Assembly (NCBI GenBank): GCA_010672825.2
Contig: JAAHFU020000002.1
Location: forward strand, 632,001-696,000
Direction of reading: 5' to 3'
Origin: Leptolyngbya sp. SIO1E4
GTDB taxonomy: Bacteria; Cyanobacteriota; Cyanobacteriia; Phormidesmidales; Phormidesmidaceae
Length of the DNA stretch: 64,000 bases
A program made the position numbers and the translations under genes. Positions 2,755-57,837 of the stretch are shown piece after piece (position 1 is the first letter of the stretch; every line of letters begins with the position of its first letter). The notes beneath the pieces were generated by a model, which did not search any database, had not been told where the DNA came from, and was given only the letters and a program-made list of their open reading frames with translations.

Positions 2755-2768
2755 CCCGACCTGGCTTC

Positions 2769-2830: not shown

Positions 2831-2884
2831 TTCCTCTTACTTCTAGCCCTTTTCTGCATACTTCACGATTCCGAGTGTAAAACC

Positions 2885-3463
2885 ATGACACTGCTTTCTA
2901 CTAAAAAGCGTTTCTTTATCGGTCTGAGCACCCTCGCTTTCGCCGGGGTGCTCCCGTTCGCGAACGAACCCGTCCGGGCTCAACTGCTTGAGGTTACTGA
3001 GTCTATTGTTGAAGCCGTTCGTCAGCCTGAAGTCAAGCTGACGCTGACTGCTGAGAAGCAACTCGTTGAGATAGATGTTGACGGCGAAGAAAAAATCTCC
3101 TGGGAATCCCTCGGCAATAAGGCCCAGGTGCAGCCCAGCGATGTCCTTCGTTACACCGTTGATGGCAGCAATTCGGGTGATATTGAAGCCAGCAATTTCA
3201 ACATCACCCAACCCATCCCGGTTCAGATGACCTATGTGCTAGATTCTGCCGTTAGCGCTAACGAGGCCACCCTCATCACTTACAGCATTGACAGTGGTGA
3301 AACCTTCGTTGAGGAACCCATGGTGGAAGTGGTGCTACCCGATGGCACCGTTGAACTGCAACCTGCCCCCGCTGAAGCTTACACCCATGTCAACTGGAGC
3401 TTTGAAGAGTCTCTGACTTCAGCTTCTGAAGTGGAAGTGAGCTATCAGGCCACTGTGAATTAG
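2885..3463 (+). CDS. Small secreted DUF11-like domain protein
   Basis: 192 residues with a clear signal peptide (KKRFFIGLSTLAFAGVLPF, cleavage probably after VRA near residue 32). The mature protein is about one DUF11-like domain: VQPSDVLRYTVDGSNSGD (about 80-97) matches the start of the fold, and the chain ends on VSYQATVN. It lies 130 bases after the first surface gene and in the same direction, so it is likely part of the same display system, perhaps as a minor subunit or cap. No catalytic residues are seen. The ATG at 2885 is chosen because the signal peptide follows directly. Confidence 0.75.
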   Translation: MTLLSTKKRFFIGLSTLAFAGVLPFANEPVRAQLLEVTESIVEAVRQPEVKLTLTAEKQLVEIDVDGEEKISWESLGNKAQVQPSDVLRYTVDGSNSGDIEASNFNITQPIPVQMTYVLDSAVSANEATLITYSIDSGETFVEEPMVEVVLPDGTVELQPAPAEAYTHVNWSFEESLTSASEVEVSYQATVN

Positions 3464-3891
3464 TCCTAAGACCAGGTGTTGGCAGGCCTTGCCTACCAAC
3501 ACCGCTCATTCAGGGGAATCGGGGCCTGTTTTCGCCCATTCTGGGCAATGGGCTCCCTCGATAAATCTGCATCTACCGACACAATTAGCGTTGTTCAACA
3601 CTCTTTCTGGTTAATCGCTTTTGTGTCTCCGGGCCAGTTTTAGAGTGCCTGTGTACGTTCTTGAGGAGTTCCTGAAAATCCTGCGTCACAGCTTTCTCAA
3701 AACCTTTAGACACTTACCTATACGAATTAATTGAGGCGTTGTCTGAGTGGGCTCAGCGATGGGGGCTTTTGTACCCCCATCAGACCCCACTACAGGATTC
3801 TTGTGTCAGTGGATGGCCCGATTTAGCCAGATCCGGCTTTAGGAGACCTGACGGTTAGGTCCCTGGTCGTTGAGAACTCGGGAGTAAATCC
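3464..3891 (+). other. 428-base intergenic region with hairpins
   Basis: No gene is seen. A strong hairpin, GGTGTTGG plus AGGC pairing with GCCT plus CCAACACC (3475-3503), follows the upstream stop. It lacks a T run, so it is not a canonical terminator. Further on, 3741-3785 can fold as GTCTGA/TCAGAC around GATGGGGG/CCCCCATC, with CTGAG/CTCAG (3743-3756) as an alternative. This second element sits about 110 bases before the next start and may be a leader structure. No known riboswitch class was recognised. Confidence 0.45.
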
Positions 3892-5430
3892 ATGATCCGC
3901 ACCTATCATCCACCTACCAAACCTAAGCGCCGACGGCGGCGAGGTCTCACCCTAGCCACAGCGCTATTAAGCCTTTGCCAGCTCAACTCTATTGCTCTAG
4001 CAGACGCTCAGCTCGATAACCAAGCTGTCTACAGGTATCGAGACAAAACGACTGGGCGCATTTATGAGGGCAGTACTGGGGTCAATTCGCCCGTGAGTCC
4101 CGAGCCACTGATCGATCCTTTGGGTCAAATTCTCGCCTGTGATGGCAGCGTCCTTTCAGACTACAACGGCTATTCAATCGCATTTTATGAACCAGATGCT
4201 TCAGGATTAGCCCCTGGCAACCTGCTGGATTTAACGTTTACAGAATTTCCTGAAGTCCCTAACAACGGGGTTCCAGGCGGTAAACCGCCTAATGTCAGCA
4301 ATATTAATCCTTTTTCATTAACGAATGCAGATGCAGGCACCTACAACTTTCTGTTTGACCCCAGCAAACCGCTGACCAGCCCTATTAATGCGGGGCTAAA
4401 CCAGTCTGATGTAGGTTCTCAGTACATTTTGGTGGTGAATCCACCAGATGACTCAGGCCTGGAGGAACGTCGCGTACTGCTCACCATTCTTAGCAGCACC
4501 GGCGGCGTTAACAACAGCATTATTCGCTACGAGGCGAGGGCTCTAGACGGCATTCCCCTGTCAGCCACAGGGGGCACCCAGCTAACCGACACAGTCGTAG
4601 AGGTGCTAGATGCGGAGAGCCAGGGGCTCAACCTGTTTTCTCTAGCGCTGGGCATGGTGCTCTGCAGCAATGACCAGGTTCGCATTGAGAAAACCGCCGA
4701 TCGCGGAGCCGTCCAGCCTGGAGACACCGCTGTTTATCGACTCAATATCAAAAACCTGGCAGAAGTTCCCCTTGATGAGTTAACGGTCACCGATGAGCTG
4801 CCGCTGGGCTTCCGCCTCTTGCCAGAAGCAACCCGAGCCACCATCGACGGTCAGACGGTGGCCATCGACACCGAAGCCAGCCGCGATGGTCTCAACGTCA
4901 CGTTTACCACTCCCAACTCCATTCCAGTCAACGGCTCCTTAGACATCATCTACGCCGTACAAATTACGCCAGATGCGATCCGCGGGGATGGGCGCAATTC
5001 CGCCGCCGTGGATGCTGAGCGCACCGACAACGACTTCGCCATTCAGGATGGTCCGGTGAGCCACCAGATGCGGTTAGATCCCGGCATCCTCTCCAACTGC
5101 GGCACCTTACTAGGCCGCGTGTTCGTAGACAAAAACTTCGATGGTGAGCAACAGCCTGGTGAGCCGGGCGTACCTAACGCCGTGATCTTTTTAGACGACG
5201 GCAATCGCATCGTAACCGATGAGAACGGGCTGTATTCGGTGGACTGTGTCTTAGCGGGTCGCCGCACAGGTGCCTTAGACCTGAGTAGCCTGCCCGGCTA
5301 CACCCTAGCCCCCAACCTGTATTTCAGAGAACGCAACAGCCAATCGCGCTTGGTCAACTTAGCCCCCGGTGGACTGGTCCGCATGAACTTTGCGGTAACG
5401 CCCACATTCCAAGAGGAGGCAGCACAATGA
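3892..5430 (+). CDS. Secreted DUF11 / SdrD-B-like domain protein
   Basis: 512 residues. The N-terminus is strongly basic (PKRRRRRG) followed by a signal peptide ending near NSIALA. Residues 30-260 form an unassigned beta-rich region. A DUF11 domain starts about 264 (EKTADRGAVQPGDTAVYRL). From about 407 to 470 there is an SdrD-B-like module (GRVFVDKNFDGEQQPGEPG, then VTDENGLYSV), a calcium-dependent Ig-like fold known from surface adhesins. The last four bases overlap the barrel gene (ATGA), so the two are probably translated together and the proteins may form a complex, this one perhaps as an exported partner or plug. Function is inferred from domain type and context only. Confidence 0.8.
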   Translation: MIRTYHPPTKPKRRRRRGLTLATALLSLCQLNSIALADAQLDNQAVYRYRDKTTGRIYEGSTGVNSPVSPEPLIDPLGQILACDGSVLSDYNGYSIAFYEPDASGLAPGNLLDLTFTEFPEVPNNGVPGGKPPNVSNINPFSLTNADAGTYNFLFDPSKPLTSPINAGLNQSDVGSQYILVVNPPDDSGLEERRVLLTILSSTGGVNNSIIRYEARALDGIPLSATGGTQLTDTVVEVLDAESQGLNLFSLALGMVLCSNDQVRIEKTADRGAVQPGDTAVYRLNIKNLAEVPLDELTVTDELPLGFRLLPEATRATIDGQTVAIDTEASRDGLNVTFTTPNSIPVNGSLDIIYAVQITPDAIRGDGRNSAAVDAERTDNDFAIQDGPVSHQMRLDPGILSNCGTLLGRVFVDKNFDGEQQPGEPGVPNAVIFLDDGNRIVTDENGLYSVDCVLAGRRTGALDLSSLPGYTLAPNLYFRERNSQSRLVNLAPGGLVRMNFAVTPTFQEEAAQ

Positions 5431-8400
5431 GCCTGGTTTCAGAGTCTAAAAGGATCGCCAAAGTAAGTTTGGCCGGTGCTGTAACTGGGTTGGCTGGGGT
5501 TACGACGACTGGCAATGCCGCTATCGCCAGCCCTCTGGTGCCACAACTTCCACCCAATACTCAGGAGGCAGCTGAGGCAATCTTGAGGGCTGACAGTGCT
5601 GCTCTGGCAGAGACCATAACAGCACCTCAAATTGAAGGAGCTGCCGGAACACGCCCTCGCTTTTCATCTCAGGCAACCCATTCTGTTGCGCCTAAATCCA
5701 CACCGACCCAGCTCACAGCAGCAACGGTGAGACTGCTGCAGTTTGCCAGCATTCAGCCCGAGATCGCCAGTTCGGAAACTCATCCTTATTTTTCACCCAC
5801 AACTACGCTGTTAGATCTGGGGGCGATCTCCCAAGTCCCTGACCCAGCGGCACCAACGCTTTCCTCAGAAGAAACCAGCCCGACTGTAGTCACAGATACC
5901 GAGACTGAATCGGCTGAATCAGCTGAACCCACTGAATCGGCTGAACCTGACGCCACCCCACCGTTAGCCCAACCTCAAGTCTTAAATGCCAGCCAAGTGC
6001 AAATCTTGAGCCCTGGCGTCGGGGCAGTTCTGGATGTGCCCGCCGCTACGGTTATTTTGCAATATCCCTCTGGGGCCGGGGTTAATCTTTGGGTAAACGA
6101 TGAGCGTGTAGATCCTAACTTAGTGGGTCGTACCGCTGTGGATCCTGAGAACAACCTGGTGACTCAGACCTGGTATGGGGTTCCCCTTTCAGCGGGCAAT
6201 AACACGCTCAGTGTGACCCCTGTCGATAGCGATGAAGTCCTGGCTAGCCTATCAGTACAGGTACGAGGCACCCCCGTAGAGCTAACCGTTGACACTCGGG
6301 GAGATAGCGTTTCTGCTGATGGCCGCTCCACCATTACCGTACAGGGGCAATTACTGGACGAAAATGGGAATACCTCGAACTGGGATACGGTGGTCACCCT
6401 GACAGCCAGTGACGGAACTTTTGTCGGAGCAGACTTTGCCCCTGATACCCCTGGGTTTCAGGTAGAAGCCGTTAACGGTCGTTATTCGGCAGAACTCCAG
6501 TCATCTTTAGAGGCTCAAGTGGTGCAGCTGGAGGCTAAAGCCAGCGGCATGACGGCCTACAACCAGGTACAGTTTTCTACCCAACAGCGCCCTACGCTGA
6601 TTACCGGGGTTATCGATTTACGCTTTGGGGCCGAGGGCACGAACTTCTATGGCGACCTGCGCGATTTCTTAGATCCAGATGCTGAAGGCTATGAGTTTGA
6701 CTTTACGGCCAGGGTATTTGCAACAGGCAACATTGGGGAGTGGTTATTTACAGGCGCTTACAACAGCGATCGCCCCCTCAATGAAGATTGCACTGGGACT
6801 GCCAACTTGTTTGGGCAAGATGACAACTGCAACAACGTTTACCCGACCTACGGGGATGATTCTACCCGTGACTTGCTGACCCCCTCTATTGATAGTCTCT
6901 ACCTGCGCTTTGAGCGCACCTCACCCATCCCAGGGGCAGGGGTCGACTATTTCTCCTGGGGGGACTATAGAACTGAAGAGTTTTCCAGTGCATCTCAGCT
7001 TTACAGCGGTATCAGTCGTTCTCTCCACGGCTTTAAAGCCCACTACAACTTGGGCGACTTATCGTTTACGGGCTTCTTTGGCAACAATGTTGAAGGCTTC
7101 CAGCGTGACACCATTCCACCCGATGGCACCAGCGGCACTTACTTCTTATCCCGACGCTCCTTGGTAGCCGGTAGTGAAGAAGTTTACCTGGAGCTAGAGG
7201 AATTGGATCGCCCCGGTACAGTGCTGGAGCGGCAGCGTCTCTATCGTGGTACCGACTACGAGGTTGACTACGATCGCGGTAGCTTATTCTTCCGTGATCC
7301 GATCCTGCGCACCAGCGTTGGTGAGTTCGGGGAGGTATTGGTTCGTCGCATTGTCGTGACTTACCAGTTTGAAGGCAATGACAGTAGTGACACTAACATT
7401 TATGGGGGGCGGCTTCAGTACAATCTCAGCCGCACACTAGGTCAGGAAAGCTGGCTCGGGGCCACCTATTTGCAAGAGAATCAGGGCGATCGGGGCTTTA
7501 CCTTATACGGGGCCGATGCGCGCATTTCCCTGGGTGAGTCCGCTGAAATTTTGGCTGAGTATGCCTATTCCAGCAATGATTTTGACCTGGATGGGCCGGT
7601 TTCAGGGTCTGCTTACCGGCTCGAATTTAACGGTGGGATTACCGACTGGCTGCAAGGTCGGGCTTATCTGCGTCATACCGACGCTGGCTTTAGCAACCTG
7701 GCAACTGAGAGCTTCCGCCCTGGTCAAACGCGCTACGGCACCCAGTTTAACGCCCAGCTTTCGCCAGATACAACACTGCGCTTTCAGTTTGATCGTGAAA
7801 GAAATCGCGGCACTGCGCCTCGCCCCCTCCTCACCCTAGAAGAGCTGATTGAACCCGGTAGCTCGCCCCTAACCGGCAGCGACGTAGACAACAGCTTGAC
7901 CACGATCTCTGTAGGTCTAGCCCAGCGCCTAGGGAACAGTCGCTTTGAACTAGACTGGATTCATCGCAATCGCACAGATAACGCTGCGGTTGATCGGCTT
8001 TCTTCCAGCTCTGACCAAATTCGTACCCGCCTCACAACAGAGTTAGAAGACAACTTAACGGTTTATGCCCAAAATGAACTCAACCTGTCTTCTGACAGTG
8101 ACCCGCTATACCCTAATCGGACACTGTTCGGCCTTGATTGGGAGTTAATGCCAGGCATTAGCCTGGGTGTGAACCAGATATTCATCGGTGATGGCGGCAT
8201 TAATGGTCGGGGCAACTTCACCACTGTGGATCTATCTGGAGATTACCAACTGGGTGAAGACACCACCATTCGTGGTCAACTCGCCCTGATTGACGGTCAA
8301 CAAATTGGCGGTCGCCTAGGCTTTGATCAAGGGTTTACCCTGGCACCGGGCTTGCGCCTAGACCTAAGCTATGAGCGTGTATTCAATAATCTCTATGGCA

Positions 8401-9407
8401 ACACCGCTGCCGGAGAGATCTTTAGCCAGCCCTTTGCCGTAGGCGATGGGGCATCAGCGCTACAGCTGACGAGTGGGAATAGTTTCAGCATCGGACTGGC
8501 TTATACAGATAGTGCCGATTTCCAAGCCAGCACTCGTCTGGAGCACCGCACCTCTTCACGAGGGTCTAATACGGTCTTTACAGCTTCAGCCCTCGGTCGC
8601 CTAACCCCAGCGGTTAGCACCCTATTAGACTTCCGCATGTCGCGTGCGGCTAACCAGGGTTTGAATTTGGGGACTTCTAGCACATTAAAAGTAGGGCTAG
8701 CCTATCGCGATCCGCAGCAAGACAATTTCAATGCGCTGCTGCGCTACGAGTACCGTAGAAATCCTTCTTCAATTCCAGACAGCTTGCTCTTTGGCTCTTC
8801 TATTGACACCTCAGAACACTTGTTATCTGCCGAAGCGATCTATGCTCCGAACTGGCGTTGGGAACTTTACGGCAAGTACGCTTTCCGCACCAGTTCGACC
8901 CGTATCGGGGGCTTATCTAACGGCGAAATCGAGTTCCCTGAATTCACATCTAATAGTGCGGTGCATTTGGCTCAACTGCGAGCCACCTATCGCCTGGGTT
9001 ATGCCTGGGATATCACTGGAGAGGTTCGCTGGATCGGCAGTTCCGCAGGATATAGCGAGTTTGGCACAGCACTGGAGTTAGGGTACTACATGACCCCAGA
9101 CCTGCGGCTATATGCAGGATACAGCCTGGGCGGTGCCTACGATCGCGACTTCTCGGGCGCGAATCGCTCAGCGAGTGGGCCTTACATCGGCATCACAGCT
9201 AAACTCAACAGCTTATTTGATGGCTTCGGCATCCAAGAAGTGGCTCCGCCACAGCAGCAGGAGTCTGCAACCGAGACTACTGCAACCGCTGAAGGCAGTG
9301 AAACAGAAGCGGTCTCCGAGGGGGCTAATGAGGCTGGTGAAGCCGCTGATGCTAACGCCTCCGATACTGAGCCTGCTGTCACTGTTGAGTCTCAGCAAAA
9401 TCCCTAG
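5427..9407 (+). CDS. Large outer-membrane beta-barrel protein with N-terminal Ig-like domains
   Basis: 1326 residues. After a signal-like N-terminus and an acidic spacer (ESAEPTESAEPDATP) come two Ig-like domains. The first is about 190-285. The second, about 285-390, is invasin-like (VELTVDTRGDSVSADGRS). From about 393 to 1270 alternating hydrophobic/polar strands with aromatic girdles (for example GFKAHYNLGDLSFTGFFG) show a large beta-barrel. A motif LYRGTDYEVDYDRGSLFF starts at 605. An acidic, Ala/Thr/Glu-rich tail of about 55 residues follows the last strand. The ATG overlaps the previous stop and has GAGGAGG in front, so translation is coupled. It probably spans the outer membrane and exports or anchors the neighbouring DUF11 proteins. 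It is not a standard TonB receptor: no plug domain was recognised. Confidence 0.75.
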   Translation: MSLVSESKRIAKVSLAGAVTGLAGVTTTGNAAIASPLVPQLPPNTQEAAEAILRADSAALAETITAPQIEGAAGTRPRFSSQATHSVAPKSTPTQLTAATVRLLQFASIQPEIASSETHPYFSPTTTLLDLGAISQVPDPAAPTLSSEETSPTVVTDTETESAESAEPTESAEPDATPPLAQPQVLNASQVQILSPGVGAVLDVPAATVILQYPSGAGVNLWVNDERVDPNLVGRTAVDPENNLVTQTWYGVPLSAGNNTLSVTPVDSDEVLASLSVQVRGTPVELTVDTRGDSVSADGRSTITVQGQLLDENGNTSNWDTVVTLTASDGTFVGADFAPDTPGFQVEAVNGRYSAELQSSLEAQVVQLEAKASGMTAYNQVQFSTQQRPTLITGVIDLRFGAEGTNFYGDLRDFLDPDAEGYEFDFTARVFATGNIGEWLFTGAYNSDRPLNEDCTGTANLFGQDDNCNNVYPTYGDDSTRDLLTPSIDSLYLRFERTSPIPGAGVDYFSWGDYRTEEFSSASQLYSGISRSLHGFKAHYNLGDLSFTGFFGNNVEGFQRDTIPPDGTSGTYFLSRRSLVAGSEEVYLELEELDRPGTVLERQRLYRGTDYEVDYDRGSLFFRDPILRTSVGEFGEVLVRRIVVTYQFEGNDSSDTNIYGGRLQYNLSRTLGQESWLGATYLQENQGDRGFTLYGADARISLGESAEILAEYAYSSNDFDLDGPVSGSAYRLEFNGGITDWLQGRAYLRHTDAGFSNLATESFRPGQTRYGTQFNAQLSPDTTLRFQFDRERNRGTAPRPLLTLEELIEPGSSPLTGSDVDNSLTTISVGLAQRLGNSRFELDWIHRNRTDNAAVDRLSSSSDQIRTRLTTELEDNLTVYAQNELNLSSDSDPLYPNRTLFGLDWELMPGISLGVNQIFIGDGGINGRGNFTTVDLSGDYQLGEDTTIRGQLALIDGQQIGGRLGFDQGFTLAPGLRLDLSYERVFNNLYGNTAAGEIFSQPFAVGDGASALQLTSGNSFSIGLAYTDSADFQASTRLEHRTSSRGSNTVFTASALGRLTPAVSTLLDFRMSRAANQGLNLGTSSTLKVGLAYRDPQQDNFNALLRYEYRRNPSSIPDSLLFGSSIDTSEHLLSAEAIYAPNWRWELYGKYAFRTSSTRIGGLSNGEIEFPEFTSNSAVHLAQLRATYRLGYAWDITGEVRWIGSSAGYSEFGTALELGYYMTPDLRLYAGYSLGGAYDRDFSGANRSASGPYIGITAKLNSLFDGFGIQEVAPPQQQESATETTATAEGSETEAVSEGANEAGEAADANASDTEPAVTVESQQNP

Positions 9408-9446
9408 TCCGCCCGCAGCTAATCCTTAAGAGCCAGGTATGCACTT

Positions 9447-11621
9447 ATGAAACCTATCCGCATTCCATTCCGCCGCACAACGACTCTGGGCCTCACCGCT
9501 GCAACCCTGTTGATCCAGGGGACGCTGTCGGTGCAGGCTACGGGTCAGTCTAATCGTGAAGCGCTGGCGGCTGCTGTGGCAGCCCCGACCCTAGAAGTAA
9601 CGGTCAACAGTCATCAAGATGGCCCGGTGCAGGCTGACAACGACCTCACCCTGCGGGAGGCTATCGAGTTGGTCAATGGCACCCTGTCTACAGAAGCGCT
9701 CAGTGAAGCCGAGCAAACTCAGATAACAGTTTTGGCTGATAACGCTCGTTCTGCGATCGCCTTTGATCTGCCATCCTCGGCCCCCATTGAACTGGTCGAT
9801 GTGCTACCCGACATTCAGCGCCCTGGCCTCACAATCGACGGGACTACTCAATCTGGCTATGACTCCACCCTTTCCGCAACTGCTGAAATTGCCATTCCAA
9901 TTCCAGTGGTAGCGCTGACCCCAGCTCCAGATGTTGAGGTCTTTCGGGGGCTCACCATCGTGGCCGATGAGGTTACTGTGCGGGGTCTCAGTCTCTATGG
10001 CTTTACCGCTGAGCATCGGGCGACAGCAGTCACTCCCCCCGCCGATATTTTGATTGCCAATCCGACTCCACCCCTGCACACCCGAGAAGACCAACCCGTT
10101 GCCAACTACGCCCAGTTCTATGATGAGGCCACCGCACCCCAGGGCGTGGTAATTGAGGATAACTGGTTGGGGATTCCACCTTCAGAAACGCCTCCTGAGC
10201 AAACATCGGCTTTCGGCGTATCTGTCTTTAATAGTCAAGGGGCGTTGATTCGCCGTAACCGCATCTCTCACCATGATGGCAGCGGCATCATCACTGGCTA
10301 CCGAGCCAAAAACCTAGAAGTAGCCGAGAACATCATTGTGGCCAATGGCTTCGCGGGAATGCCTGATGGCATCCGCCTAGAAGGCAACGTGGATAACAGC
10401 CATATTCACGGCAATTTGATGTGTGGAAATGATGGTGGAGGCATTTTTATGTTCAAGCCCGACGGGGCCGTCACCATTGCCAACAACGATATTAAGTTCA
10501 ACGGTCAGCGCCTTCGTCGTGCCGCGATATATGTGATGGGCAACGATCATGAAATTCGCGACAACACGATTACGAATCAAAAAGGGTCTGGGGTAGTCGT
10601 TACTGCCTTCAACCGGGATGGCGGAGCCAGCCAGAGCCAGCGCAACCTGATTCTTAACAACCAATTCAACAACTTAGAAGGACTTAGCATCGACCTCAAC
10701 ACCCGCCGCCATACAGACGTGCAAGATTTTCAGCGCGGCGATGGCCCTAACCCCAAACGTAACTCCCATCACCGCCGCCAAGAAACGGGTAATGCAGCTA
10801 TCAATGCACCGGAATTTTTAAGTGCGGAGTTTCCGATTATCAACGGCCAGGTCACCCTAGACGGAATTGCTGACCCCGGCTCTACAGTAGATCTGTATTT
10901 AACCCAGGGTGCAGCAACTGACTATGGCCCACTGAACCAGCCCTTCGCAACCGTATCCGTCAATGAGCAGGGGCAATTTAGCTACGCCACCGCCGATTTA
11001 CAGCCGGGAGACACGATCACAGCCATTGCGACTGACCCACAGTACGGTACGTCGGAACCTGCTCGCAATGGGGTCGTCCGCTCTCTGGAAAACCTGAACA
11101 CGCCCCTGGCAGAACTCCGCAGCCCCTCTTTAACCGATGGCGTCGCCATGCCTGTGTGCATCACACCGCCTGCACCCTCCGTGGCTGTAGTGCCTCCCCC
11201 TGAGCCCGAAGTGCCCCAACCGCTACGCTTAGAAGTTCCTCGCAACATTCATTTCGGCTTAGATCAGGCGCAAATTAGCCCGGAGACCGCGGCAGTACTC
11301 GATCAAATTGCAGCGGTTCTGCAGGCCCACCCCACACTAGTGGTGGATCTTCATGGCCATACCGATTCTCGTGCTAGCGTTGCCTACAACCAGGATCTAG
11401 CGCTACGACGGGCTCGTAATGCCCGTGAATATCTGATGCAGCAGGGTATCGACCCAGCTCGCATGACCATTCGCTCCTTAGGCGAGACCCAACTGCTGGT
11501 CTCAGAAACCAACCGAGAAGACTATGCCCGTAACCGCCGGGTGGAGTTTGTCTTCAGTGATGTGCGCGGGGTTGATATTACCTTTGTCAATCAAGAAACA
11601 GATCTGCAGATTGAGCCCTAA
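9447..11621 (+). CDS. CSLREA-like/beta-helix protein with C-terminal OmpA domain
   Basis: 724 residues with a signal peptide (to about QATGQS, residue 35). The segment LTLREAI near 70 resembles the CSLREA motif of surface proteins. About 240-430 is a right-handed parallel beta-helix of NosD/pectate-lyase type (repeats such as GSGIITGYRAKNLEVAENII). About 445-550 is an Ig-like domain. About 593-706 is an OmpA-type peptidoglycan-binding domain with LHGHTDSRAS and the RRARNAREYL helix. The OmpA part should hold the protein to the cell wall in the periplasm while the helix presents a long rigid surface. It is 39 bases behind the barrel gene and probably co-transcribed with it. Joining a beta-helix to OmpA is unusual. 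Confidence 0.8.
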   Translation: MKPIRIPFRRTTTLGLTAATLLIQGTLSVQATGQSNREALAAAVAAPTLEVTVNSHQDGPVQADNDLTLREAIELVNGTLSTEALSEAEQTQITVLADNARSAIAFDLPSSAPIELVDVLPDIQRPGLTIDGTTQSGYDSTLSATAEIAIPIPVVALTPAPDVEVFRGLTIVADEVTVRGLSLYGFTAEHRATAVTPPADILIANPTPPLHTREDQPVANYAQFYDEATAPQGVVIEDNWLGIPPSETPPEQTSAFGVSVFNSQGALIRRNRISHHDGSGIITGYRAKNLEVAENIIVANGFAGMPDGIRLEGNVDNSHIHGNLMCGNDGGGIFMFKPDGAVTIANNDIKFNGQRLRRAAIYVMGNDHEIRDNTITNQKGSGVVVTAFNRDGGASQSQRNLILNNQFNNLEGLSIDLNTRRHTDVQDFQRGDGPNPKRNSHHRRQETGNAAINAPEFLSAEFPIINGQVTLDGIADPGSTVDLYLTQGAATDYGPLNQPFATVSVNEQGQFSYATADLQPGDTITAIATDPQYGTSEPARNGVVRSLENLNTPLAELRSPSLTDGVAMPVCITPPAPSVAVVPPPEPEVPQPLRLEVPRNIHFGLDQAQISPETAAVLDQIAAVLQAHPTLVVDLHGHTDSRASVAYNQDLALRRARNAREYLMQQGIDPARMTIRSLGETQLLVSETNREDYARNRRVEFVFSDVRGVDITFVNQETDLQIEP

Positions 11622-11673
11622 GCAAGGGTAGCTTTCTCCTTTCAGGAAGGAGTCGTTTCTGATTGGGTAATGA

Positions 11674-11716
11674 CCTGAAGTGCCTTATTCTTTCTTATCG
11701 CACTTCAGGCTTTTTC
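11674..11716 (+). terminator. Intrinsic terminator after the OmpA/beta-helix gene
   Basis: A 10-base perfect stem (CCTGAAGTGC at 11674-11683, GCACTTCAGG at 11700-11709) is followed directly by CTTTTTC. A smaller hairpin, CTCCTT/AAGGAG, lies just upstream at 11635-11651. This should end the transcript carrying the barrel and OmpA genes. Confidence 0.85.
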
Positions 11717-12054
11717 AACTGACCTTTTATCCAGGTTTACAAGTTTTGCAAATCCGCTTTAGCTTTGCAATTCAATTCATTTAATAATTAAGAAATTTCA
11801 ACGACAAGAAATCAAACTCAAGCGTTTAAACGCTGTATTCAGTTCAAACTGAACAGTGACTTATCCGTAAGACTACATAAATTTTATTGATGAGATCCGC
11901 ATTTTTAAGGGAATCATAAAGCGGAAGACGGCTAAGGAAGCTTTTTGATGAAGACTTCCTAGTTCTGCTGGCGTCCTTGACTAGCGATCGCCAGTCAATA
12001 ATTTTTCTTAGTTGCCCACCACTAGACAGATGAAACGTAAAGGGTGTCCTGCTC
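11717..12054 (+). promoter_or_regulatory. AT-rich leader with two palindromes before the giant DUF11 gene
   Basis: After the terminator this stretch is AT-rich and carries no gene. It contains a perfect 14-base palindrome, AGCGTTTAAACGCT (11821-11834), and immediately after it TTCAGTT-CA-AACTGAA (11838-11853). Two adjacent dyads about 200 bases before the start could be operator sites or small RNA hairpins. A HIP1 octamer lies at about 11983. The promoter itself was not pinned down. Confidence 0.4.
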
Positions 12055-15000
12055 ATGAAGCGCATTCGATCTAAAGGATCTAACAATCAAAATTTTCAAG
12101 ATCCCCCTACTATACGCTCCGCTTTTACTGGGGGAGTTTTGTGGAAATTGAGCCTTTTTATTGGCACACTTTTCGTGGTGATTCTCAGCCACCTAGGTAT
12201 TTTTCATCTGCCTGCAAGTGCGGCACCTAATCCAGATATTGCCATCCTGAACACATTTGTGCCTAACAATGCCCCTCCAGGCGTTCCTGTGGTTTATCGA
12301 TTGACCTTTCGCAGCATTACTGGGAACCCAGTCGGTATTACAAGTCTTTCTCATACCCTTCCAAGTACGCCTGGAAGCCTGGTTTTTGATGGTACTGCCA
12401 CCAGTGCGAATACTTGCGGTAGCAGCGTTACCATTACTGAGGGTAGTAATCCAGGCAGTCCGGGCTCTTTTACTCTGACTGGAGGGACGATTCCAGCTGG
12501 TGACCCCGGGCAATGTGTGATTGAGATTCCAGTCAAAGGATTTGAGGAAGGAAACCATACCGATACGATTCCTGCTGAAGCCCTCTTTACGGATGTGGGT
12601 GAGAACCAAGACGCCACATCTGCGACGCTGCAAGTTGACGAATCTCAAAATGTCAACATTAGCAAACGGTTTTCTCCCAACACAATTCCAGGAAATGGCC
12701 GCTCAGAAGTCAGAATTCGGCTCAGGAACCAGAATGACTATGACCTAACTGGGACGACAGATGTGCCCACTCTGGTAGATGATTTACCGAGTACACCGAA
12801 CCAGCTGACGGTAGATACCCGTACAGGCGCACCCGCACCGACCACTACCTGTGCGGGGGGCACAGTCAACATTACCAATGGGGGTACAAGTATTGAGCTG
12901 GTGGGGGGAACCATTCCAGCCAATAGTCGCTGCGATATTTTCTTCCCAGTTACTCAAGCCAACGGCGGCACCTATACCAACAACATTCCGCCCAACTCGT
13001 TGAGCACCGTCAACCAAATCAGTAATGGCAATAACGTTAACGCCAACCTCAACATTCAGACGGAGGTAACTATCGATAAAAGCTTTTCAGACAACCTCAT
13101 TAGTGAAGGCGATAACACTACAGTCACCATTACCGTTAGAAACGGTAGTGCTGCTCTTACCAATGCTGGCCTCACCGATGATCTGCCAGCTCCGTTAGTA
13201 GTTGCAAGCCCGGCTAATGCCACCACCACTTGTACTGTCTCTGGCAACTCAGAACCTCTATCGGTCACCCCAGGATCGTCTAGCTTTTCGCTAACGGCTG
13301 GTCAAATCCCTTCGTCTGACCCCAATACGAATGGATTGGGTGAATGTGTAATCGTGGTTGAAGTCACGGCAGACCCTGGGATTCAAACCAACATTCCCGG
13401 TCAAAATTCGTCGGATTTAGACAACATCATCCCCGCGATGGCGCTGACCAATACTCAGAATCAGACCAACGAAGACCCTACCAACGACACCATCAGGGTA
13501 CAAACAGCACTCGTTGCAAGTAAAAGCTATTCCAACAACAACACAATTTCTCCAGGCGCATCAACCCAGATGGACATTCAGATTACGAATCGCTCTGTCA
13601 CAACGAATGCCACTGGCGTTAATTTTACGGATGCTTTGCCCTCGCCCCTAGAAGTTGCCAATCCCTTGGAGGTCTCTTACAACAGCAATTGTGGTGGTGG
13701 TGTCTTATCGGCTGTGGCCCCGGGTGATACTACCCTCAACTTTACTGGAGGAAACATCCCCGCTAACAGCACCTGTACGATCAGGATCGCTGTGTTTGTA
13801 CCCGCAACGGCAACCGTGGGAGACAACCTGGATAACGTTATCGACGATGATTCAATCAATAACGATCAGGGGTTTGATAGCAACGGCGTAACTGGCGACG
13901 AAGGCCGATTACAGGTGGTCAACCGGGTAGAAATCATCAAGGCATTTGACCGCAACGCCATTCGCCGGGGCGAAATCTCCACGCTGATTATTCGCATTGA
14001 GAACAACCGCCGCAACTCGACAACTGGGGATCCAGAACCGCTGACTGGGGTAGCCATCAATGATAATTTACCCGATAACTTACAGGTGGCGACCCCGGCC
14101 AACTTTAGCCACACGGGTTGTAGCCACAACGGGGCTACCCCAGTTTTCTCAGGGACAACATCAGGATCAACCGCCTTTAGCATGACAGGTGCGGCCATAG
14201 CGCCAATTAGCGATTCTGACCCAGAAGCGGATACTTGTGAAATTCGCTTTGATGTGGCTGAAATCAATCTCGATTTCTTCTTCGACAGTCCCAATAATGA
14301 AACCCCTCGAACCTACAACAACACCACCTCTGGTTTCACCAACGATCAATCCGAACCAGCGGATGAGGATACGGCTGACCTGACGGTGATTTCGCCGCTG
14401 GATGGGGAGAAATTCTTCCAGTCTGAGCAGGTTACGGCAGGGGGCCGCTCCACTGCTGTGATTCAGCTCAATAACTCGTTGCCAACCCCCCTCACGGTCG
14501 TCTCTTTTACCGACAGTTGGACTCAGGCCAACACCGTCGTCGCGGATCCGATCAATGCCAGTACTACTTGTGGGGGGGGCAGCGTTACCACGACACCTGG
14601 CAGTCAGACGGTAACCCTCACAAGCGGCACGGTGCCAGCACAGACGGGCGGGGTCTTTGGGCTTTGTGAGATTCGCTTTGATGTGCAAATGGATGCCTCT
14701 GGAGGTAATACCTTTACGAATACCCTGCCAGCAAACAGTGTTAGCACTAATGAAGGCTTTACTAACCCTACGGATATTACCGGTGATCTGACACGAACCA
14801 CGGCCACCATCAACGTCAACAAAGCATTTAGCCCCAACAGCCTGTTTGTGGGCGACCCAGCAACAGTAACCATCACGGTGACGAACCCCAATAACGGCAT
14901 TCCGATTACAGAGTTTGGGTTTACCGATACAATGCCTGCTGAAATGTTGGTTTTCTCGATTCCAAATGCGACGACGACCTGCACTAACGGAACCGTCACT

Positions 15001-16185
15001 GCTAACGCCGGAGAAAACACCTATACGTTGAGTGGGGCAGATCTAGGCAGCGATGAAAGCTGTGAAGTCTCAGTCCAGGTGACGCTAGTAGACACCGGTA
15101 ACTCGATTAACGAAGTGCCCATCGGGACGATTGAAAGTAAAGAAAACGTCACCAATGATCAGTTAGCGCAGTCAACGCTGAATGCCCTAGCTGCCCTCAG
15201 ACCGGCTAAATCCTTTAACCCCACCAGCATAGAGGGCGCAGAAATCAGCCAGCTCACGCTAACGATTGAAAACTTGCAGGTAGATACCTCTTCTGGGGAG
15301 TCTTTGCAAAACGTTTCGATTACCGACACCCTGCCAGCTGATTTGTTTATCGCCAATACACCCAATGCATCAACTGATTGTGCAGGCGGAACGGTCAACG
15401 CCCCGGCAGGGGGTACGGTCGTCTCAATGACGGGGGCAACGCTGGCACCCCAGGCAAGCTGTCAGATCTTTGTAGATGTGACTTCAGCGTTAGCGGGCAG
15501 TTATGAAAACCAGATCGATCGGGGTAACGTCACAGCTCAGCTTCAGCCGTCCCTAGGCGGTTCTACTATCGAAAATACGTCTCGACCGACGGCGACTCTG
15601 ACCGTCACCAGTGACTCACTGCCACCAGAGATATTGCTAGTGAAGCGGATTACAGCCATCAATGGAGTTGATATCACTGGCGATGAAGATAGCCCAGGTT
15701 CAGATGACCCCCACTGGCCTACCCCTACAGCGACCTCCCTACGCGGGGTGATTAACTACACCGATCCGGTGGTGCCTGGGGACGATATTGAGTACACCAT
15801 TTACTACCTCAATACCGGCCTGAGCAATGCGACCGATGTTAGGATTTGCGATCGCATTCCCGAATTCACGACCTTTGTCCCCAGGGGCTACAGCTCTGGC
15901 ACGCCAGCGGCTGATCCCAGTGGGTTGCCAGGAGCTGACCGAGGCATTGTTTTGGCAGAAGCGGGTAGTGAGGCTTCCCTCTCCAATGTGAGCGACGGTG
16001 ACGCCGGTTACTACTTTGCCCCAGGGGAAGATCCTCAAACGGCTTTCCCCGGTATTAGCTGTGACGGGGATAGCAGCAACGGCACTGTGGTGGTGAGTGT
16101 CCCGAATCCGGTGCCACCAGCCACGGGGCCAAGTACACCTCCGGCTTCCTATGGTTACATTCGCTTTAAGTCTCGGGTGAACTAG
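12055..16185 (+). CDS. Giant secreted protein of 8-9 DUF11-like repeats
   Basis: 1376 residues. A hydrophobic helix (about 30-57, ending LPASAA) is the signal peptide. The rest is a tandem array of beta-sandwich repeats of about 130-155 residues starting near 63, 201, 339, 487, 626, 782, 920, 1049 and 1194. Most repeats open with a variant of KSFSPNSI followed by TVTITVxN. Eight repeats carry one cysteine pair, the first in a TTCxGGxV-like context and the second in CxIxVxV, 30-45 residues apart, suggesting one disulphide per repeat. The chain ends GYIRFKSRVN. This is a fibre-like extracellular protein. It follows a terminator and a 338-base leader, so it has its own promoter, and it is closed by its own terminator. 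Confidence 0.85.
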   Translation: MKRIRSKGSNNQNFQDPPTIRSAFTGGVLWKLSLFIGTLFVVILSHLGIFHLPASAAPNPDIAILNTFVPNNAPPGVPVVYRLTFRSITGNPVGITSLSHTLPSTPGSLVFDGTATSANTCGSSVTITEGSNPGSPGSFTLTGGTIPAGDPGQCVIEIPVKGFEEGNHTDTIPAEALFTDVGENQDATSATLQVDESQNVNISKRFSPNTIPGNGRSEVRIRLRNQNDYDLTGTTDVPTLVDDLPSTPNQLTVDTRTGAPAPTTTCAGGTVNITNGGTSIELVGGTIPANSRCDIFFPVTQANGGTYTNNIPPNSLSTVNQISNGNNVNANLNIQTEVTIDKSFSDNLISEGDNTTVTITVRNGSAALTNAGLTDDLPAPLVVASPANATTTCTVSGNSEPLSVTPGSSSFSLTAGQIPSSDPNTNGLGECVIVVEVTADPGIQTNIPGQNSSDLDNIIPAMALTNTQNQTNEDPTNDTIRVQTALVASKSYSNNNTISPGASTQMDIQITNRSVTTNATGVNFTDALPSPLEVANPLEVSYNSNCGGGVLSAVAPGDTTLNFTGGNIPANSTCTIRIAVFVPATATVGDNLDNVIDDDSINNDQGFDSNGVTGDEGRLQVVNRVEIIKAFDRNAIRRGEISTLIIRIENNRRNSTTGDPEPLTGVAINDNLPDNLQVATPANFSHTGCSHNGATPVFSGTTSGSTAFSMTGAAIAPISDSDPEADTCEIRFDVAEINLDFFFDSPNNETPRTYNNTTSGFTNDQSEPADEDTADLTVISPLDGEKFFQSEQVTAGGRSTAVIQLNNSLPTPLTVVSFTDSWTQANTVVADPINASTTCGGGSVTTTPGSQTVTLTSGTVPAQTGGVFGLCEIRFDVQMDASGGNTFTNTLPANSVSTNEGFTNPTDITGDLTRTTATINVNKAFSPNSLFVGDPATVTITVTNPNNGIPITEFGFTDTMPAEMLVFSIPNATTTCTNGTVTANAGENTYTLSGADLGSDESCEVSVQVTLVDTGNSINEVPIGTIESKENVTNDQLAQSTLNALAALRPAKSFNPTSIEGAEISQLTLTIENLQVDTSSGESLQNVSITDTLPADLFIANTPNASTDCAGGTVNAPAGGTVVSMTGATLAPQASCQIFVDVTSALAGSYENQIDRGNVTAQLQPSLGGSTIENTSRPTATLTVTSDSLPPEILLVKRITAINGVDITGDEDSPGSDDPHWPTPTATSLRGVINYTDPVVPGDDIEYTIYYLNTGLSNATDVRICDRIPEFTTFVPRGYSSGTPAADPSGLPGADRGIVLAEAGSEASLSNVSDGDAGYYFAPGEDPQTAFPGISCDGDSSNGTVVVSVPNPVPPATGPSTPPASYGYIRFKSRVN

Positions 16186-22233: not shown

Positions 22234-23181
22234 TTAGAGAAAGCAAATGGCGTCTGGTGTAGAGGGGCAGACAAAGTCTTCCAGTGGATTGTTGTATAGA
22301 TAGACCTCAGTCAGGCTGGGCAGTTGCTGTAACACTCCGGTCTCTACAATCTGATTGCGATTGAGATTGAGTTCCTCTAGATTCACTAAGGACTTTAAGG
22401 GAGAAATATCTACGATCTGATTAGAACTCAGGTCAAGTTGTTCTAGGGCAGTGAGCGTTTCAATAGGGCCCATGTCAACAACTGCGTTGTGATTGAGATG
22501 CAGAATTTCTAGTTGGCTGAGGGAAGATAAAGGTGCAATGTCGCTAATTTGGTTCCGCCCCAGGTAAAGTGCCTTGAGCATGCTTAATCCGCTTAGGGCT
22601 GATAGATCAGTAATCTGGTTTTCTAAAAGGACAAGGTTCTGCAACTGTTCCAGTGCAGCGAGCGGCTTTAAATCAGTAATTTGGTTAGCGCTGAGTGACA
22701 GCCGTTGCAAGTTGGTGAGGGTAGCTAACGGCCCAATATCAACAACTTGGTTATTGTGAAGCACTAATTCACGTAATAAGGGTAAGGTTGCTAACGGGCG
22801 CAAATCTTCAAGTCCACGACTGCTGAGGTTTAGCAAGGTCAACGTAGAGGCACGACGGCTGGCCTCAGTGCAGTCTTCTGTGCCCAGTGCTTCTAGTAAG
22901 GTAGCGACCGTATGTTTGGCGCTAGTGTCTAGCCGATCCTGAGACAGGCACCAATCTTCGAAAATATAGGGAGTTGTTGGGGCAATGGGGGTGGAATTAG
23001 GGGCATCACGTTGGGTCATCAGTTCGGCCCAACTGGGAAGGGTAATTAGGCCAGCCACTAGAGATATTAAAGACGCGGCTGCATATTTCATCTGCTCCAT
23101 GGGGATATTTAAAGAGTAAAGTTGCAAGGGTGTTGAGTCGTCGTTTTCAAGTTCTAACTTGACTGTTGCGTTCAGGGACAT
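22234..23181 (-). CDS. Secreted leucine-rich-repeat protein (internalin/SDS22-like)
   Basis: 315 residues. About eight 22-residue leucine-rich repeats run from about 115 to 300, with the pattern LxxLxLxxNQIxDIxPL (NLQRLSLSANQITDLKPL). The chain closes with DFVCPSTPDAICFL, whose two cysteines may cap the array. The outermost ATG (23181, AAGG in front) puts 30 residues ahead of a good signal peptide (MKYAAASLISLVAGLITLP). Starting at 23100 or 23091 would expose it directly and may be the true start. The repeats form a protein-binding surface, probably in the periplasm or outside. The gene is divergent from the photosensor kinase, 126 bases apart. Confidence 0.8.
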   Translation of the reverse strand: MSLNATVKLELENDDSTPLQLYSLNIPMEQMKYAAASLISLVAGLITLPSWAELMTQRDAPNSTPIAPTTPYIFEDWCLSQDRLDTSAKHTVATLLEALGTEDCTEASRRASTLTLLNLSSRGLEDLRPLATLPLLRELVLHNNQVVDIGPLATLTNLQRLSLSANQITDLKPLAALEQLQNLVLLENQITDLSALSGLSMLKALYLGRNQISDIAPLSSLSQLEILHLNHNAVVDMGPIETLTALEQLDLSSNQIVDISPLKSLVNLEELNLNRNQIVETGVLQQLPSLTEVYLYNNPLEDFVCPSTPDAICFL

Positions 23182-23307: not shown

Positions 23308-26300
23308 ATGCCCAACCAGTCTTCTGCCTCGGCTGCTACTAGCCACCTCAATTTACCGATGTCCGTTGCCGCTACGCTGCTTTCCCAGGCCCTGGATGGT
23401 GTGCCAACTGCGGTATACGTTAAAGACCGCCAGCACCGATGGTTGTTTGCAAATGTAGCGTGTTGTGATTTATTGGGGCGATCGCAGGCGCAGATTATTG
23501 AGACACCAGAATCAGCAATTTTGCCTGCGACCCTGGCGAATCAATTTCGGCAGCAGGATGAAACACTCTTTCAAGGACAGCCTAGCTCAATCCAGCGTGT
23601 GACGTTGGTAAATCGTGAAGGGAGTCGTCTTATCCTGAGCCGACGCACAGAGCTGACAGCTGATGGCACCTTGTTGCTATGTTTCTTACAACCGTGCAGT
23701 GAGGTTGTGACCCCTCCAAGCACGACGGCGGAGGCATTGCCTGAAAATGTGCCTCAATTTCAGGCCTTGTTAGCCAACGTACCTGCCGTCATTTATCAGC
23801 TTTGCCGTGGATCTGATGGGCAGATCCGATGTACGTTTGTTAGCTCTGGTGCGTTCGAAGCCCTGGGAATTGCGTCAGAAGTCATTCAGGCCAATCCTGA
23901 TGTCATCCTGAACTATATCCATCCTTTAGATCGGCCTAATTTTGAGGGTATCTTAACCCCTTTCTCAAAATCGGCTCCTTGGCGTTGGGAAGGGCGTTAC
24001 TACAAACCGAGTGGGGAACAACGGTGGCTACAAACAGCGGCCCGTCTGCAGGCAATGCCAGATGGCACCCTGGTCTGGGATGGGCTACTGATGGATATTA
24101 CCAGCCGCAAGCAGGTAGCCGCAGCGACCATTGAGCAGGCGGTCATGGAACAGGCCCTGGCCGATAATGAAGCCCGTTTCCGCACGATCGCAGCCACCAT
24201 CCCCGGCGCACTCTTTCAATTGCGCGTGCAGTCAGGGCAATGCTCAATTGATTATGTGAGCGATCGCATTCGCGATATTGCAGGGGTGTCCCCCCGGGAC
24301 ATTATGGAAGACGCCCGGGTGCTTCTGGAGCGGATTCACCCGTTGGATCGCGATCGCCTGCAAGTCACGATCGGGGCAGCCATCTCTAACATTAGCCCGT
24401 GGCAGTTTGAAGGGCGCATTATCACCCCAGACGGCCACACCCGATGGTGGCACGGGGATGCCATGCCTTTACAGCAGCCCCAGGACGGCGTTGTGTTTTG
24501 CGGGGTGGTGCTTGATATCACCGAACGCAAAACCATCGAAGAAGCCTATCAAGAAAACGAACGGCGGCTACGCATGGCCCTGAATGTCTCTGGGATGGGG
24601 GTATGGACCTGGGATCTAGCCAGCGACCAGATGACCTGGACCACTGAACCGGGCAGCTTGTTTGGGTCAACAGCAGCCACCTTTTGCGACACTTTCGAAT
24701 CTTATTTGCAGAAGATTTGTTCTAGCGATCGCGCTTCCTTGCGTCAGGCCATGGGGCAATCTCTGGAACAAGGTCACGATTACCGCATTGAATACCGGAT
24801 TTCCCTTGGAGACGGCACGATTCGCTGGATTCGCGAGCGGGGCGGGCCTTGGCGAGATCGAGACGGCATCGTCATCGGGTTAATGGGGACAGTAATCGAT
24901 ATTACTGATCTCAAAACTGCTGACGCCGCCTTAGCAGAGAGCGAAGAGCGCTACCGGACGCTGCTCAACAATATCCCTGGCACCGTCTATCGGTGTCAGA
25001 TTGGTAAAGATTGGACGTTGCTTTTCCAAAGTGAAGCAATTGCTGACATTAGCGGTTACCCCGTTGATCACCCGATTCATCAAGAAGGCTGGCGACTCAT
25101 TCATGCCGATGATCGAGATCGCGTTGATCAAGAAACCGCAGCGGCGATCGCCCAACGCCGCCCCTTTGATGTGGAGTATCGGATTCTCCATGCAGACGGC
25201 AGCATTCGTTGGGTGCAAAATACGGGACAGCCGATTACCAATATCACTGGGGCAGTAGAGTTCATTGATGGCGTGCTGACAGACATTACCCGCCGCAAAG
25301 AATCTGAAACTCGCTTCCGAGAACTTGCCCAGCGGGAAGTGCTCATCAACCGCATTTCTACCCAAATTCGAGAGTCTCTAGAATTAACGCCAATTTTGCA
25401 GACCACTGTGCAGGCAGTCCGGCACCAACTGGCAACGGATCGGGTTGTGGTTTATCGCTTTGAGGACGATTGGATGGGGGAGGTCGTGGTTGAAGCGGTC
25501 GTTTCCCCTTGGCAATCGACCCTGGGGGAACTGGGTGCCGATAATTGCTTTCCCTCAGGGTATGCCAACTATTATGAGTCGGGCCGGGTGCGCGCCATTG
25601 ACGACATTTATCAAGCGGGACTAGACGAATGCCACCTACACTATCTTGAAAGCTTGCAGGTACGGGCAAGTCTGATTGTGCCGATTTTGCTGCAAAAGAG
25701 GCTCTGGGGTTTGCTGATTGCCCATGAATGCCGGGGGGTGAGGCATTGGACGGGCAGTGAGATTGAACTGCTGATTTCATTGGCAGGGCAAGCCGGAATT
25801 GCCATTGGGCAAGCAGACCTATATCAGCGAGCGACGGAAAATGCGATTCGGGCTCGACAGCAGGCCGAAGATTTAGAAGCGACTCTGGCCGAGTTACAGC
25901 GGACTCAAGCGCAACTGGTGCAAACCGAGAAAATGTCGAGCTTAGGCCAACTGGTGGCAGGGGTTGCTCATGAAATCAACAATCCGGTCAGTTTTATCAG
26001 CGGGAACATTAGCCATGCATGGCGATATACCCAGGACCTGCTGGCTCTCATCCAACAATACCAAGCGTTCTATCCAACCCCTCCTCCTGAGCTTTTGGCC
26101 CTAATCCAAAAGATTGATCTGGAGTTTTTAGCAGAAGACTTTCCAAAACTGCTGGAGTCGATGCGGATCGGGGCAGATCGGATCAAGAGCATTGTCACTT
26201 CCCTGCGTCACTTTTCTCGAATGGATGAGGCTGAAATTAAAGCCGTGGACATCCACGATGGCTTAGAAAGTACGCTGATGATTTTGCAGAACCGTCTGAA

Positions 26301-26736
26301 GGCAAACGGCGATCGCCCTGAAGTGAGATTACATCGGATGTATGCTGAGCTGCCACCGGTAGAATGCTATGCCGGACAGCTCAATCAGGTCTTTATGAAC
26401 CTGATCAGCAACGCCATTGACGCCCTAGAAGATCAAATGCAGGTGGGTAAACAACAGCCTCCCCCTGAAATTTGCATCGCCACTGAACAGGTCCCCCCGA
26501 ACCAAGTCCGCATCACGATCGCGGATAATGGGCCAGGGATCTCAACCCAGAAAAGACGACGAATTTTTGAACCGTTCTACACGACCAAACCCATCGGCAA
26601 GGGCACGGGGATTGGACTATCCATTAGCTATCAAATCGTGACGGAGCGCCACCAAGGCACCCTTAATTGTGAATCGCAGCCAGGCGAGGGCACAACCTTT
26701 CACATCATGATCCCCCTGCGCCAGGGAACCACTTAA
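23308..26736 (+). CDS. Multi-PAS, DXCF-type cyanobacteriochrome GAF sensor histidine kinase
   Basis: 1142 residues, no membrane helix. Five PAS domains (about 20-140, 148-270, 285-405, 415-540, 545-665; several end in DITxRK-type PAC segments) precede a phytochrome-like GAF domain (about 690-845), a HisKA helix with His888 in AGVAHEINNP, and an HATPase domain (NLISNAIDALED, IADNGPGI, GKGTGIGLSI). The GAF domain has DNCF with Cys747 and the canonical ECH with Cys775, exactly 28 residues apart, the pattern of DXCF cyanobacteriochromes that bind phycoviolobilin-type chromophores through two cysteines. It is therefore probably a blue/green or similar light-sensing kinase. No response regulator is adjacent. 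GGAG sits just before the ATG. Confidence 0.88.
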   Translation: MPNQSSASAATSHLNLPMSVAATLLSQALDGVPTAVYVKDRQHRWLFANVACCDLLGRSQAQIIETPESAILPATLANQFRQQDETLFQGQPSSIQRVTLVNREGSRLILSRRTELTADGTLLLCFLQPCSEVVTPPSTTAEALPENVPQFQALLANVPAVIYQLCRGSDGQIRCTFVSSGAFEALGIASEVIQANPDVILNYIHPLDRPNFEGILTPFSKSAPWRWEGRYYKPSGEQRWLQTAARLQAMPDGTLVWDGLLMDITSRKQVAAATIEQAVMEQALADNEARFRTIAATIPGALFQLRVQSGQCSIDYVSDRIRDIAGVSPRDIMEDARVLLERIHPLDRDRLQVTIGAAISNISPWQFEGRIITPDGHTRWWHGDAMPLQQPQDGVVFCGVVLDITERKTIEEAYQENERRLRMALNVSGMGVWTWDLASDQMTWTTEPGSLFGSTAATFCDTFESYLQKICSSDRASLRQAMGQSLEQGHDYRIEYRISLGDGTIRWIRERGGPWRDRDGIVIGLMGTVIDITDLKTADAALAESEERYRTLLNNIPGTVYRCQIGKDWTLLFQSEAIADISGYPVDHPIHQEGWRLIHADDRDRVDQETAAAIAQRRPFDVEYRILHADGSIRWVQNTGQPITNITGAVEFIDGVLTDITRRKESETRFRELAQREVLINRISTQIRESLELTPILQTTVQAVRHQLATDRVVVYRFEDDWMGEVVVEAVVSPWQSTLGELGADNCFPSGYANYYESGRVRAIDDIYQAGLDECHLHYLESLQVRASLIVPILLQKRLWGLLIAHECRGVRHWTGSEIELLISLAGQAGIAIGQADLYQRATENAIRARQQAEDLEATLAELQRTQAQLVQTEKMSSLGQLVAGVAHEINNPVSFISGNISHAWRYTQDLLALIQQYQAFYPTPPPELLALIQKIDLEFLAEDFPKLLESMRIGADRIKSIVTSLRHFSRMDEAEIKAVDIHDGLESTLMILQNRLKANGDRPEVRLHRMYAELPPVECYAGQLNQVFMNLISNAIDALEDQMQVGKQQPPPEICIATEQVPPNQVRITIADNGPGISTQKRRRIFEPFYTTKPIGKGTGIGLSISYQIVTERHQGTLNCESQPGEGTTFHIMIPLRQGTT

Positions 26737-57744: not shown

Positions 57745-57837
57745 GGCAACGATACTGCTTGTAAATAAGGGTTACAAATACGAATGGCTCATTAAGATAT
57801 GGCTTGGGTGTGTCACGCGGGGCGATGACGCACTCTA

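What the first reader, a model, noticed from the sequence alone, without database searches (positions are those of the whole stretch)
25546..25632. Two cysteines of a DXCF cyanobacteriochrome in the multi-PAS kinase
The GAF domain has D-N-C-F (Cys747) and canonical E-C-H (Cys775) exactly 28 residues apart. In well-studied DXCF photoreceptors such as TePixJ the second cysteine lies the same distance ahead, and both bind the bilin. A blue/green or similar photocycle is predicted, on a kinase with five PAS domains in front.
Basis: partly seen in the sequence, partly recalled or inferred. Interest (0 to 1): 0.6.

Follow-up and report, generated by a model that had tools for sequence, protein, structure and literature searches.

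The report
Blue/green-type light-sensing kinase in cyanobacterium
The gene encodes a sensor kinase whose GAF domain has every tested sequence mark of a known class of cyanobacterial light receptor, the two-cysteine DXCF cyanobacteriochromes; it is probably a working blue/green colour switch, but it is an ordinary member of a class already well studied.

Summary
ORF 23308-26736 (+, 1142 aa) has D-N-C-F at 745-748 (Cys747, 25546-25548) and E-C-H at 774-776 (Cys775, 25630-25632), 28 residues apart as in TePixJ (C494/C522). Architecture: five PAS domains, one GAF domain, and a histidine kinase with HisKA and HATPase. The nearest solved structures are cyanobacteriochromes. A predicted model superposes on TePixJ GAF at about 1.3-1.6 A. 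The core pocket residues I could map are kept (Asp, Cys, Phe, Tyr, Gly-Arg, Cys-His). The beta2/alpha4 tuning positions are Val/Leu as in TePixJ, not the Phe associated with teal forms. The genome has one PcyA and two heme oxygenases. Orthologues occur in about 11 of 65 family genomes. The same genome holds five other GAFs with DXCF plus canonical Cys, so this is a new member of a known kind. It lies in a different DXCF clade from TePixJ, in which I could place no characterised protein, so the colour pair is an inference (blue/green most likely). A side result: in one sister genus some orthologues lost the canonical Cys or changed the DXCF motif while the kinase stayed conserved.

The parts
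23308..26736 (+). Complete gene, 1142 aa: five PAS domains, DXCF cyanobacteriochrome GAF, histidine kinase
   Evidence: open reading frame; Pfam domains
23377..23694 (+). PAS 1, residues about 24-129
   Evidence: PF00989 33.8 bits, cut-off 22.6; PF08448 32.9 bits, cut-off 23.1
23836..24075 (+). PAS 2, residues about 177-256
   Evidence: PF08447 35.6 bits, cut-off 25.6
24253..24495 (+). PAS 3, residues about 316-396
   Evidence: PF08447 56.3 bits
24637..24894 (+). PAS 4, residues about 444-529
   Evidence: PF08447 55.1 bits
25021..25275 (+). PAS 5, residues 572-656
   Evidence: PF08447 69.2 bits
25315..25860 (+). Cyanobacteriochrome-type GAF domain with flanking helices (Pfam GAF at residues 693-833)
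   Evidence: PF01590 E 6e-22; PDB cyanobacteriochromes E 5e-40 to 2e-33; AlphaFold2 pLDDT 87.8, Foldseek match to TePixJ
25540..25551 (+). D-N-C-F motif, residues 745-748; second Cys is Cys747 at 25546-25548
   Evidence: sequence; aligned with TePixJ D492-C494-F495
25627..25635 (+). E-C-H motif, residues 774-776; canonical bilin Cys is Cys775 at 25630-25632, then His776
   Evidence: sequence; aligned with TePixJ C522-H523
25942..26733 (+). Histidine kinase: HisKA with A-H-E-I-N-N-P at residues 887-893 (phospho-acceptor His888), HATPase_c at 1024-1138 with N, G1 and G2 motifs
   Evidence: PF00512 and PF02518; motif positions

Best explanation
It is a DXCF cyanobacteriochrome histidine kinase. 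Phycocyanobilin made by the cell's heme oxygenase and PcyA attaches to Cys775 through ring A. Cys747 forms a second, labile thioether to C10 of the bilin, giving a blue-absorbing dark state (by analogy about 430 nm). Light flips the C15=C16 bond and breaks the Cys747 link, giving a longer-wavelength state: green if the bilin has been isomerised to phycoviolobilin, orange to red if it stays phycocyanobilin. The GAF signal passes through the long helix after the GAF into the kinase and changes phosphorylation at His888. The five PAS domains probably add other inputs or dimer contacts. Shown here: sequence, homology, predicted fold, pocket residues, chromophore genes, conserved architecture. Inferred: bilin binding, photocycle, colour, kinase output. 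No partner response regulator was found nearby.
For: Both Cys at the exact positions and spacing. Best PDB sequence hits are cyanobacteriochromes: 6oap E 4.8e-40, TePixJ 3vv4 E 1.9e-33. The AlphaFold2 model (pLDDT 87.8) matches TePixJ 4glq at 1.3 A over 141 columns. Pocket residues are conserved and the beta2/alpha4 residues are Val726/Leu783, as in TePixJ. PcyA is above its equivalog cut-off, 345 against 206 bits, and is the only bilin reductase found; two heme oxygenases. 109 of 134 aligned GAFs have both Cys. In five-PAS orthologues the GAF keeps 64-79% identity, close to the kinase (70-74%) and mostly above the PAS domains (35-78%), so the sensor is under constraint in this lineage. Kinase motifs are intact.
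Against: No biochemistry. TePixJ H498 and Q526 are Gly751 and Tyr779 here. TePixJ lies in another clade, and no characterised protein could be placed in the window's clade. Two orthologues of a sister genus have altered Cys motifs, so the sensor is not needed in every lineage.
Confidence: 0.87

Rival explanations
1. It is a two-Cys cyanobacteriochrome, but PCB is not (or only partly) converted to phycoviolobilin, so the photoproduct absorbs orange or red, or is a PCB/PVB mixture as in Tlr0924.
For: PVB formation is incomplete even in the classic DXCF protein Tlr0924 (PMC4067208). Some DXCF members have teal, green or orange photoproducts (PMC5578081). The window's clade is separate from TePixJ's. 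Position 526 is Tyr, not Gln.
Against: Typical DXCF domains make PVB (PMC11284453). The beta2 and alpha4 residues match TePixJ.
Confidence: 0.35
2. The GAF binds bilin weakly or not at all, and the free cysteines serve another purpose such as redox sensing; the protein responds mainly to PAS ligands.
For: In one genus, orthologues with a conserved kinase have changed the canonical Cys or the DXCF motif, along with other invariant columns.
Against: The window protein keeps all core pocket residues, including His776, Asp745 and Arg760, with GAF identity close to the kinase's.
Confidence: 0.08
3. The Cys pair is a coincidence in an ordinary non-photosensory GAF domain.
For: Many GAF-like domains in the same genome lack one or both Cys.
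Against: 0 of 200,000 shuffles reproduce the motif pair; homologous columns, fold and pocket agree.
Confidence: 0.02

Closest known systems
TePixJ GAF (Thermosynechococcus; PDB 4glq, 4fof, 3vv4, 6pru), prototype blue/green DXCF cyanobacteriochrome
   Same: DXCF and canonical Cys 28 apart; D492, F495, Y503, R507, H523 equivalents; Val and Leu at beta2 and alpha4; fold 1.3-1.6 A
   Different: 37-40% identity; TePixJ is annotated as a methyl-accepting chemotaxis protein, not a PAS-kinase; H498, W499 and Q526 are Gly, Tyr and Tyr; different clade in the tree
Tlr0924 (DXCF blue/green cyanobacteriochrome, Thermosynechococcus)
   Same: DXCF subgroup with second thioether to C10 (PMC4067208)
   Different: sequence not compared here; mixed PCB/PVB in Tlr0924
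6oap/6oaq/6ob8 dual-sensor histidine kinase
   Same: best sequence and fold hit; cyanobacteriochrome GAF in a sensor kinase with canonical C-H
   Different: has D-Q-Y-F, so lacks the DXCF second Cys; alpha4 residue is Phe
Orthologues in the same family (G027, G007, G014, G029; Halomicronema MAG L063)
   Same: same five-PAS, GAF and kinase layout; GAF 70-78% identical
   Different: G001 and G022 orthologues have altered Cys motifs; the Halomicronema MAG copy (L063) has an in-frame TAG, real or an assembly error
DXCIP cyanobacteriochromes lacking the canonical Cys
   Same: second Cys in the same motif position (PMC5578081)
   Different: window protein has Phe, not Ile-Pro, and has the canonical Cys

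Membership tests
DXCF cyanobacteriochrome | GAF domain of the phytochrome/cyanobacteriochrome superfamily | tested here: met
DXCF cyanobacteriochrome | Asp-Xaa-Cys-Phe motif with second Cys | tested here: met
   D745-N746-C747-F748
DXCF cyanobacteriochrome | canonical Cys followed by His | tested here: met
   C775-H776
DXCF cyanobacteriochrome | no WXDXXL motif (the mark of the red/green lineage) | tested here: met
   residues 743-748 read G-A-D-N-C-F
DXCF cyanobacteriochrome | conserved pocket residues of TePixJ | tested here: met
   D492, F495, Y503, G506, R507, H523 equivalents identical; W499 to Tyr (common in the set), H498 to Gly, Q526 to Tyr
Teal-DXCF subgroup | Phe at beta2 and in helix alpha4 (trapped twist) | tested here: not met
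   Val726 and Leu783; rule from PMC5578081 and PMC5240096
Insert-Cys cyanobacteriochrome | second Cys in an insertion loop (CXXR/K) | tested here: not met
   no insertion and no such Cys; the only GAF Cys are 747, 775 and 808
DXCF cyanobacteriochrome | covalent bilin binding and labile second thioether with reversible photoconversion | not testable with these tools
   needs expressed protein
Blue/green DXCF (PVB-forming) | PCB to PVB isomerisation; Pb/Pg spectra | not testable with these tools
   inferred from beta2/alpha4 residues only; clade has no member characterised here
Histidine kinase | HisKA His plus HATPase N, G1 and G2 motifs | tested here: met

The most novel reading that the evidence does not exclude
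The five-PAS/DXCF kinase lineage is a natural series in which a light sensor is being lost or re-tuned while the kinase and PAS parts stay under constraint: the window protein is fully two-Cys, whereas sister-genus orthologues have canonical Cys to Asp (L038) or D-I-C-C plus C-Y (L041). The kinase would then be a multi-input sensor for which light is optional.
Probability: 0.25. Interest if true: 0.35.

Novelty: new member of a known kind. Interest (0 to 1): 0.2.

Why it matters
It adds a conserved but apparently uncharacterised DXCF receptor, coupled to five PAS domains and a kinase, to a clade with no member that I could identify as characterised. A spectrum of one member would calibrate colour prediction for that clade (42 sequences in my tree). 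It changes no general idea.

Tried and rejected
Papers that assign DXCF lineages to colours (Rockwell 2015), the AnPixJ/TePixJ structure paper, the JBC paper on Acaryochloris DXCF proteins and Rockwell and Lagarias 2023 are not held. The only DXCF chains I recognised among the listed PDB hits are TePixJ, so no characterised member could be put in the window's clade. The first alignment used the wrong strand for minus-strand loci and was redone. The first tree display failed and was rerun. The order-level search returned the same 65 genomes as the family search. Plasmid records gave only distant hits, at most 42% identity. Chance motif, insert-Cys and teal-DXCF readings were tested and rejected. 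No response-regulator domain was found in the 36 other window proteins scanned.

Full report
OBSERVATION. The gene at 23308-26736 (+) is an intact 1142-residue frame. D-N-C-F lies at residues 745-748, with Cys747 at 25546-25548. E-C-H lies at 774-776, with Cys775 at 25630-25632. The spacing of 28 equals that of C494 and C522 in TePixJ (PMC6955287). No shuffle of the GAF (0 of 200,000) or of the protein (0 of 20,000) gave the pair.

ARCHITECTURE. Pfam on separate segments gives five PAS domains, each above its cut-off. Then come a GAF domain (693-833), HisKA and HATPase_c, with A-H-E-I-N-N-P at 887 and N, G1 and G2 motifs. No LOV flavin motif is present. Neighbours are a divergent leucine-rich-repeat gene upstream and DUF2062 and DUF3611 genes downstream. 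No response-regulator domain was found in the 36 other window proteins scanned, so the kinase appears orphan.

IDENTITY OF THE GAF. The best solved relatives are nearly all cyanobacteriochromes: 6oap E 4.8e-40, 8k9o, TePixJ 3vv4 E 1.9e-33. An AlphaFold2 model from the window sequence and 15 relatives has mean pLDDT 87.8. It matches 6oap, miRFP670nano and TePixJ 4fof/4glq, the last two at 1.3-1.6 A rmsd.

POCKET. Aligned to TePixJ, residues D492, C494, F495, Y503, G506, R507, C522 and H523 are identical (D745, C747, F748, Y756, G759, R760, C775, H776). H498 is Gly751, W499 is Tyr752 and Q526 is Tyr779. W499 and H498 hold the B-ring propionate in TePixJ (PMC6955287). Tyr is the commonest residue at the W499 position among the aligned DXCF GAFs, including the TePixJ-clade members L007 and L058. 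The beta2 and alpha4 positions, Phe in red/green and teal-DXCF forms (PMC5578081; PMC5240096), are Val726 and Leu783, as in TePixJ. My assignment of these two columns rests on my own knowledge of the NpR6012g4/AnPixJ motif. The red/green WXDXXL Trp is absent.

CHROMOPHORE SUPPLY. The genome has one ferredoxin-dependent bilin reductase hit, and it scores as PcyA (345 bits, cut-off 206). It also has two heme oxygenases. PCB is therefore the expected bilin.

HOW ORDINARY IT IS. The same 8.2 Mb genome has 35 GAF matches. Besides the window, L002, L003, L004, L006 and L007 carry DXCF plus C-H. Of 134 aligned GAFs from this genome, relatives and named genomes, 109 have both Cys; these were collected with the window as query, so the figure is not a census. 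In an IQ-TREE phylogeny the window falls in a clade of 42 (support 100/96), apart from the TePixJ clade of 12 (100/91); bootstrap values are rough.

CONSERVATION. A match at E <= 1e-62 occurs in 13 of 65 genomes of the family. Eleven of these (including the window's own) I take as orthologues: ten rows of the close clade in the tree, plus G059, whose copy carries a stop codon and was not in the tree. The five-PAS layout was seen end to end in G027, G007, G014, G001 and G022, nearly so in the Halomicronema MAG copy L063, and as far as the contig reaches in G029. In the intact five-PAS proteins GAF identity (64-79%) is close to kinase identity (71-74%). In genus g2 there is erosion: L038 has canonical Cys to Asp and five further changes in 45 otherwise invariant columns; L041 has D-I-C-C, C-Y and nine changes in all; L063 has an in-frame TAG in the GAF, and the G059 match (L152) also has one TAG inside; G032 (L148) has a frame break at about residue 453. 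The stop and the frame break may be assembly errors.

MECHANISM. Most likely the standard DXCF cycle: 15Z bilin with Cys747 bound to C10 absorbs blue; light gives 15E, the thioether breaks, and absorption moves to green (PVB) or to orange/red (PCB). Known DXCF examples show both PVB-only and mixed populations (PMC11284453; PMC4067208). Signal to the kinase through the post-GAF helix is inference. I put 0.87 on a functional two-Cys photoreceptor and about 0.55 on a blue/green pair specifically.

VERDICT. The feature is a new member of a known kind. The only mildly unusual points are the five-PAS coupling and the natural variation of the two Cys among close orthologues.

Noticed in passing
L038 (G001), L041 (G022): Orthologues in one sister genus keep the five-PAS/kinase frame but have lost the canonical Cys (P-D-H) or changed DXCF to D-I-C-C with C-Y.
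   Followed up: partly
L063 (Halomicronema MAG), L152 (G059), L148 (G032): In-frame TAG in the GAF of L063 (and one TAG inside the G059 match), and a frame break at about residue 453 in G032; real decay or assembly error not decided.
   Followed up: partly
L047, L048, L072, L080: GAFs with DXCF but no canonical Cys and no DXCIP motif, in separate places of the tree (L072's and L080's exact positions are unresolved); L047 and L048 form a small clade.
   Followed up: partly
L011 (G000:C1:359241-359708): Same genome has a D-P-C-I-P GAF without canonical Cys (DXCIP type) next to a PixJ-like DXCF GAF (L007) in one open frame.
   Followed up: no
window 22234-23181 (-) and L144 10439-11170: Divergent leucine-rich-repeat gene beside the kinase; a 57% identical copy lies beside the G007 orthologue but was not found beside the other orthologues checked.
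   Followed up: partly
window 54046-60174 (-): AAA_35 plus TPR protein (1232 aa) and TIR plus AAA_35 protein (540 aa) separated by a Uma2-family gene, with a second Uma2 gene alongside; TIR-STAND-like, possibly defence.
   Followed up: no
window 46-16185 (+): Run of large proteins on one strand with DUF7925, DUF7933/DUF11 repeats and an OmpA/beta-helix protein; two (512 and 1326 aa) have no Pfam match at 1e-8.
   Followed up: no
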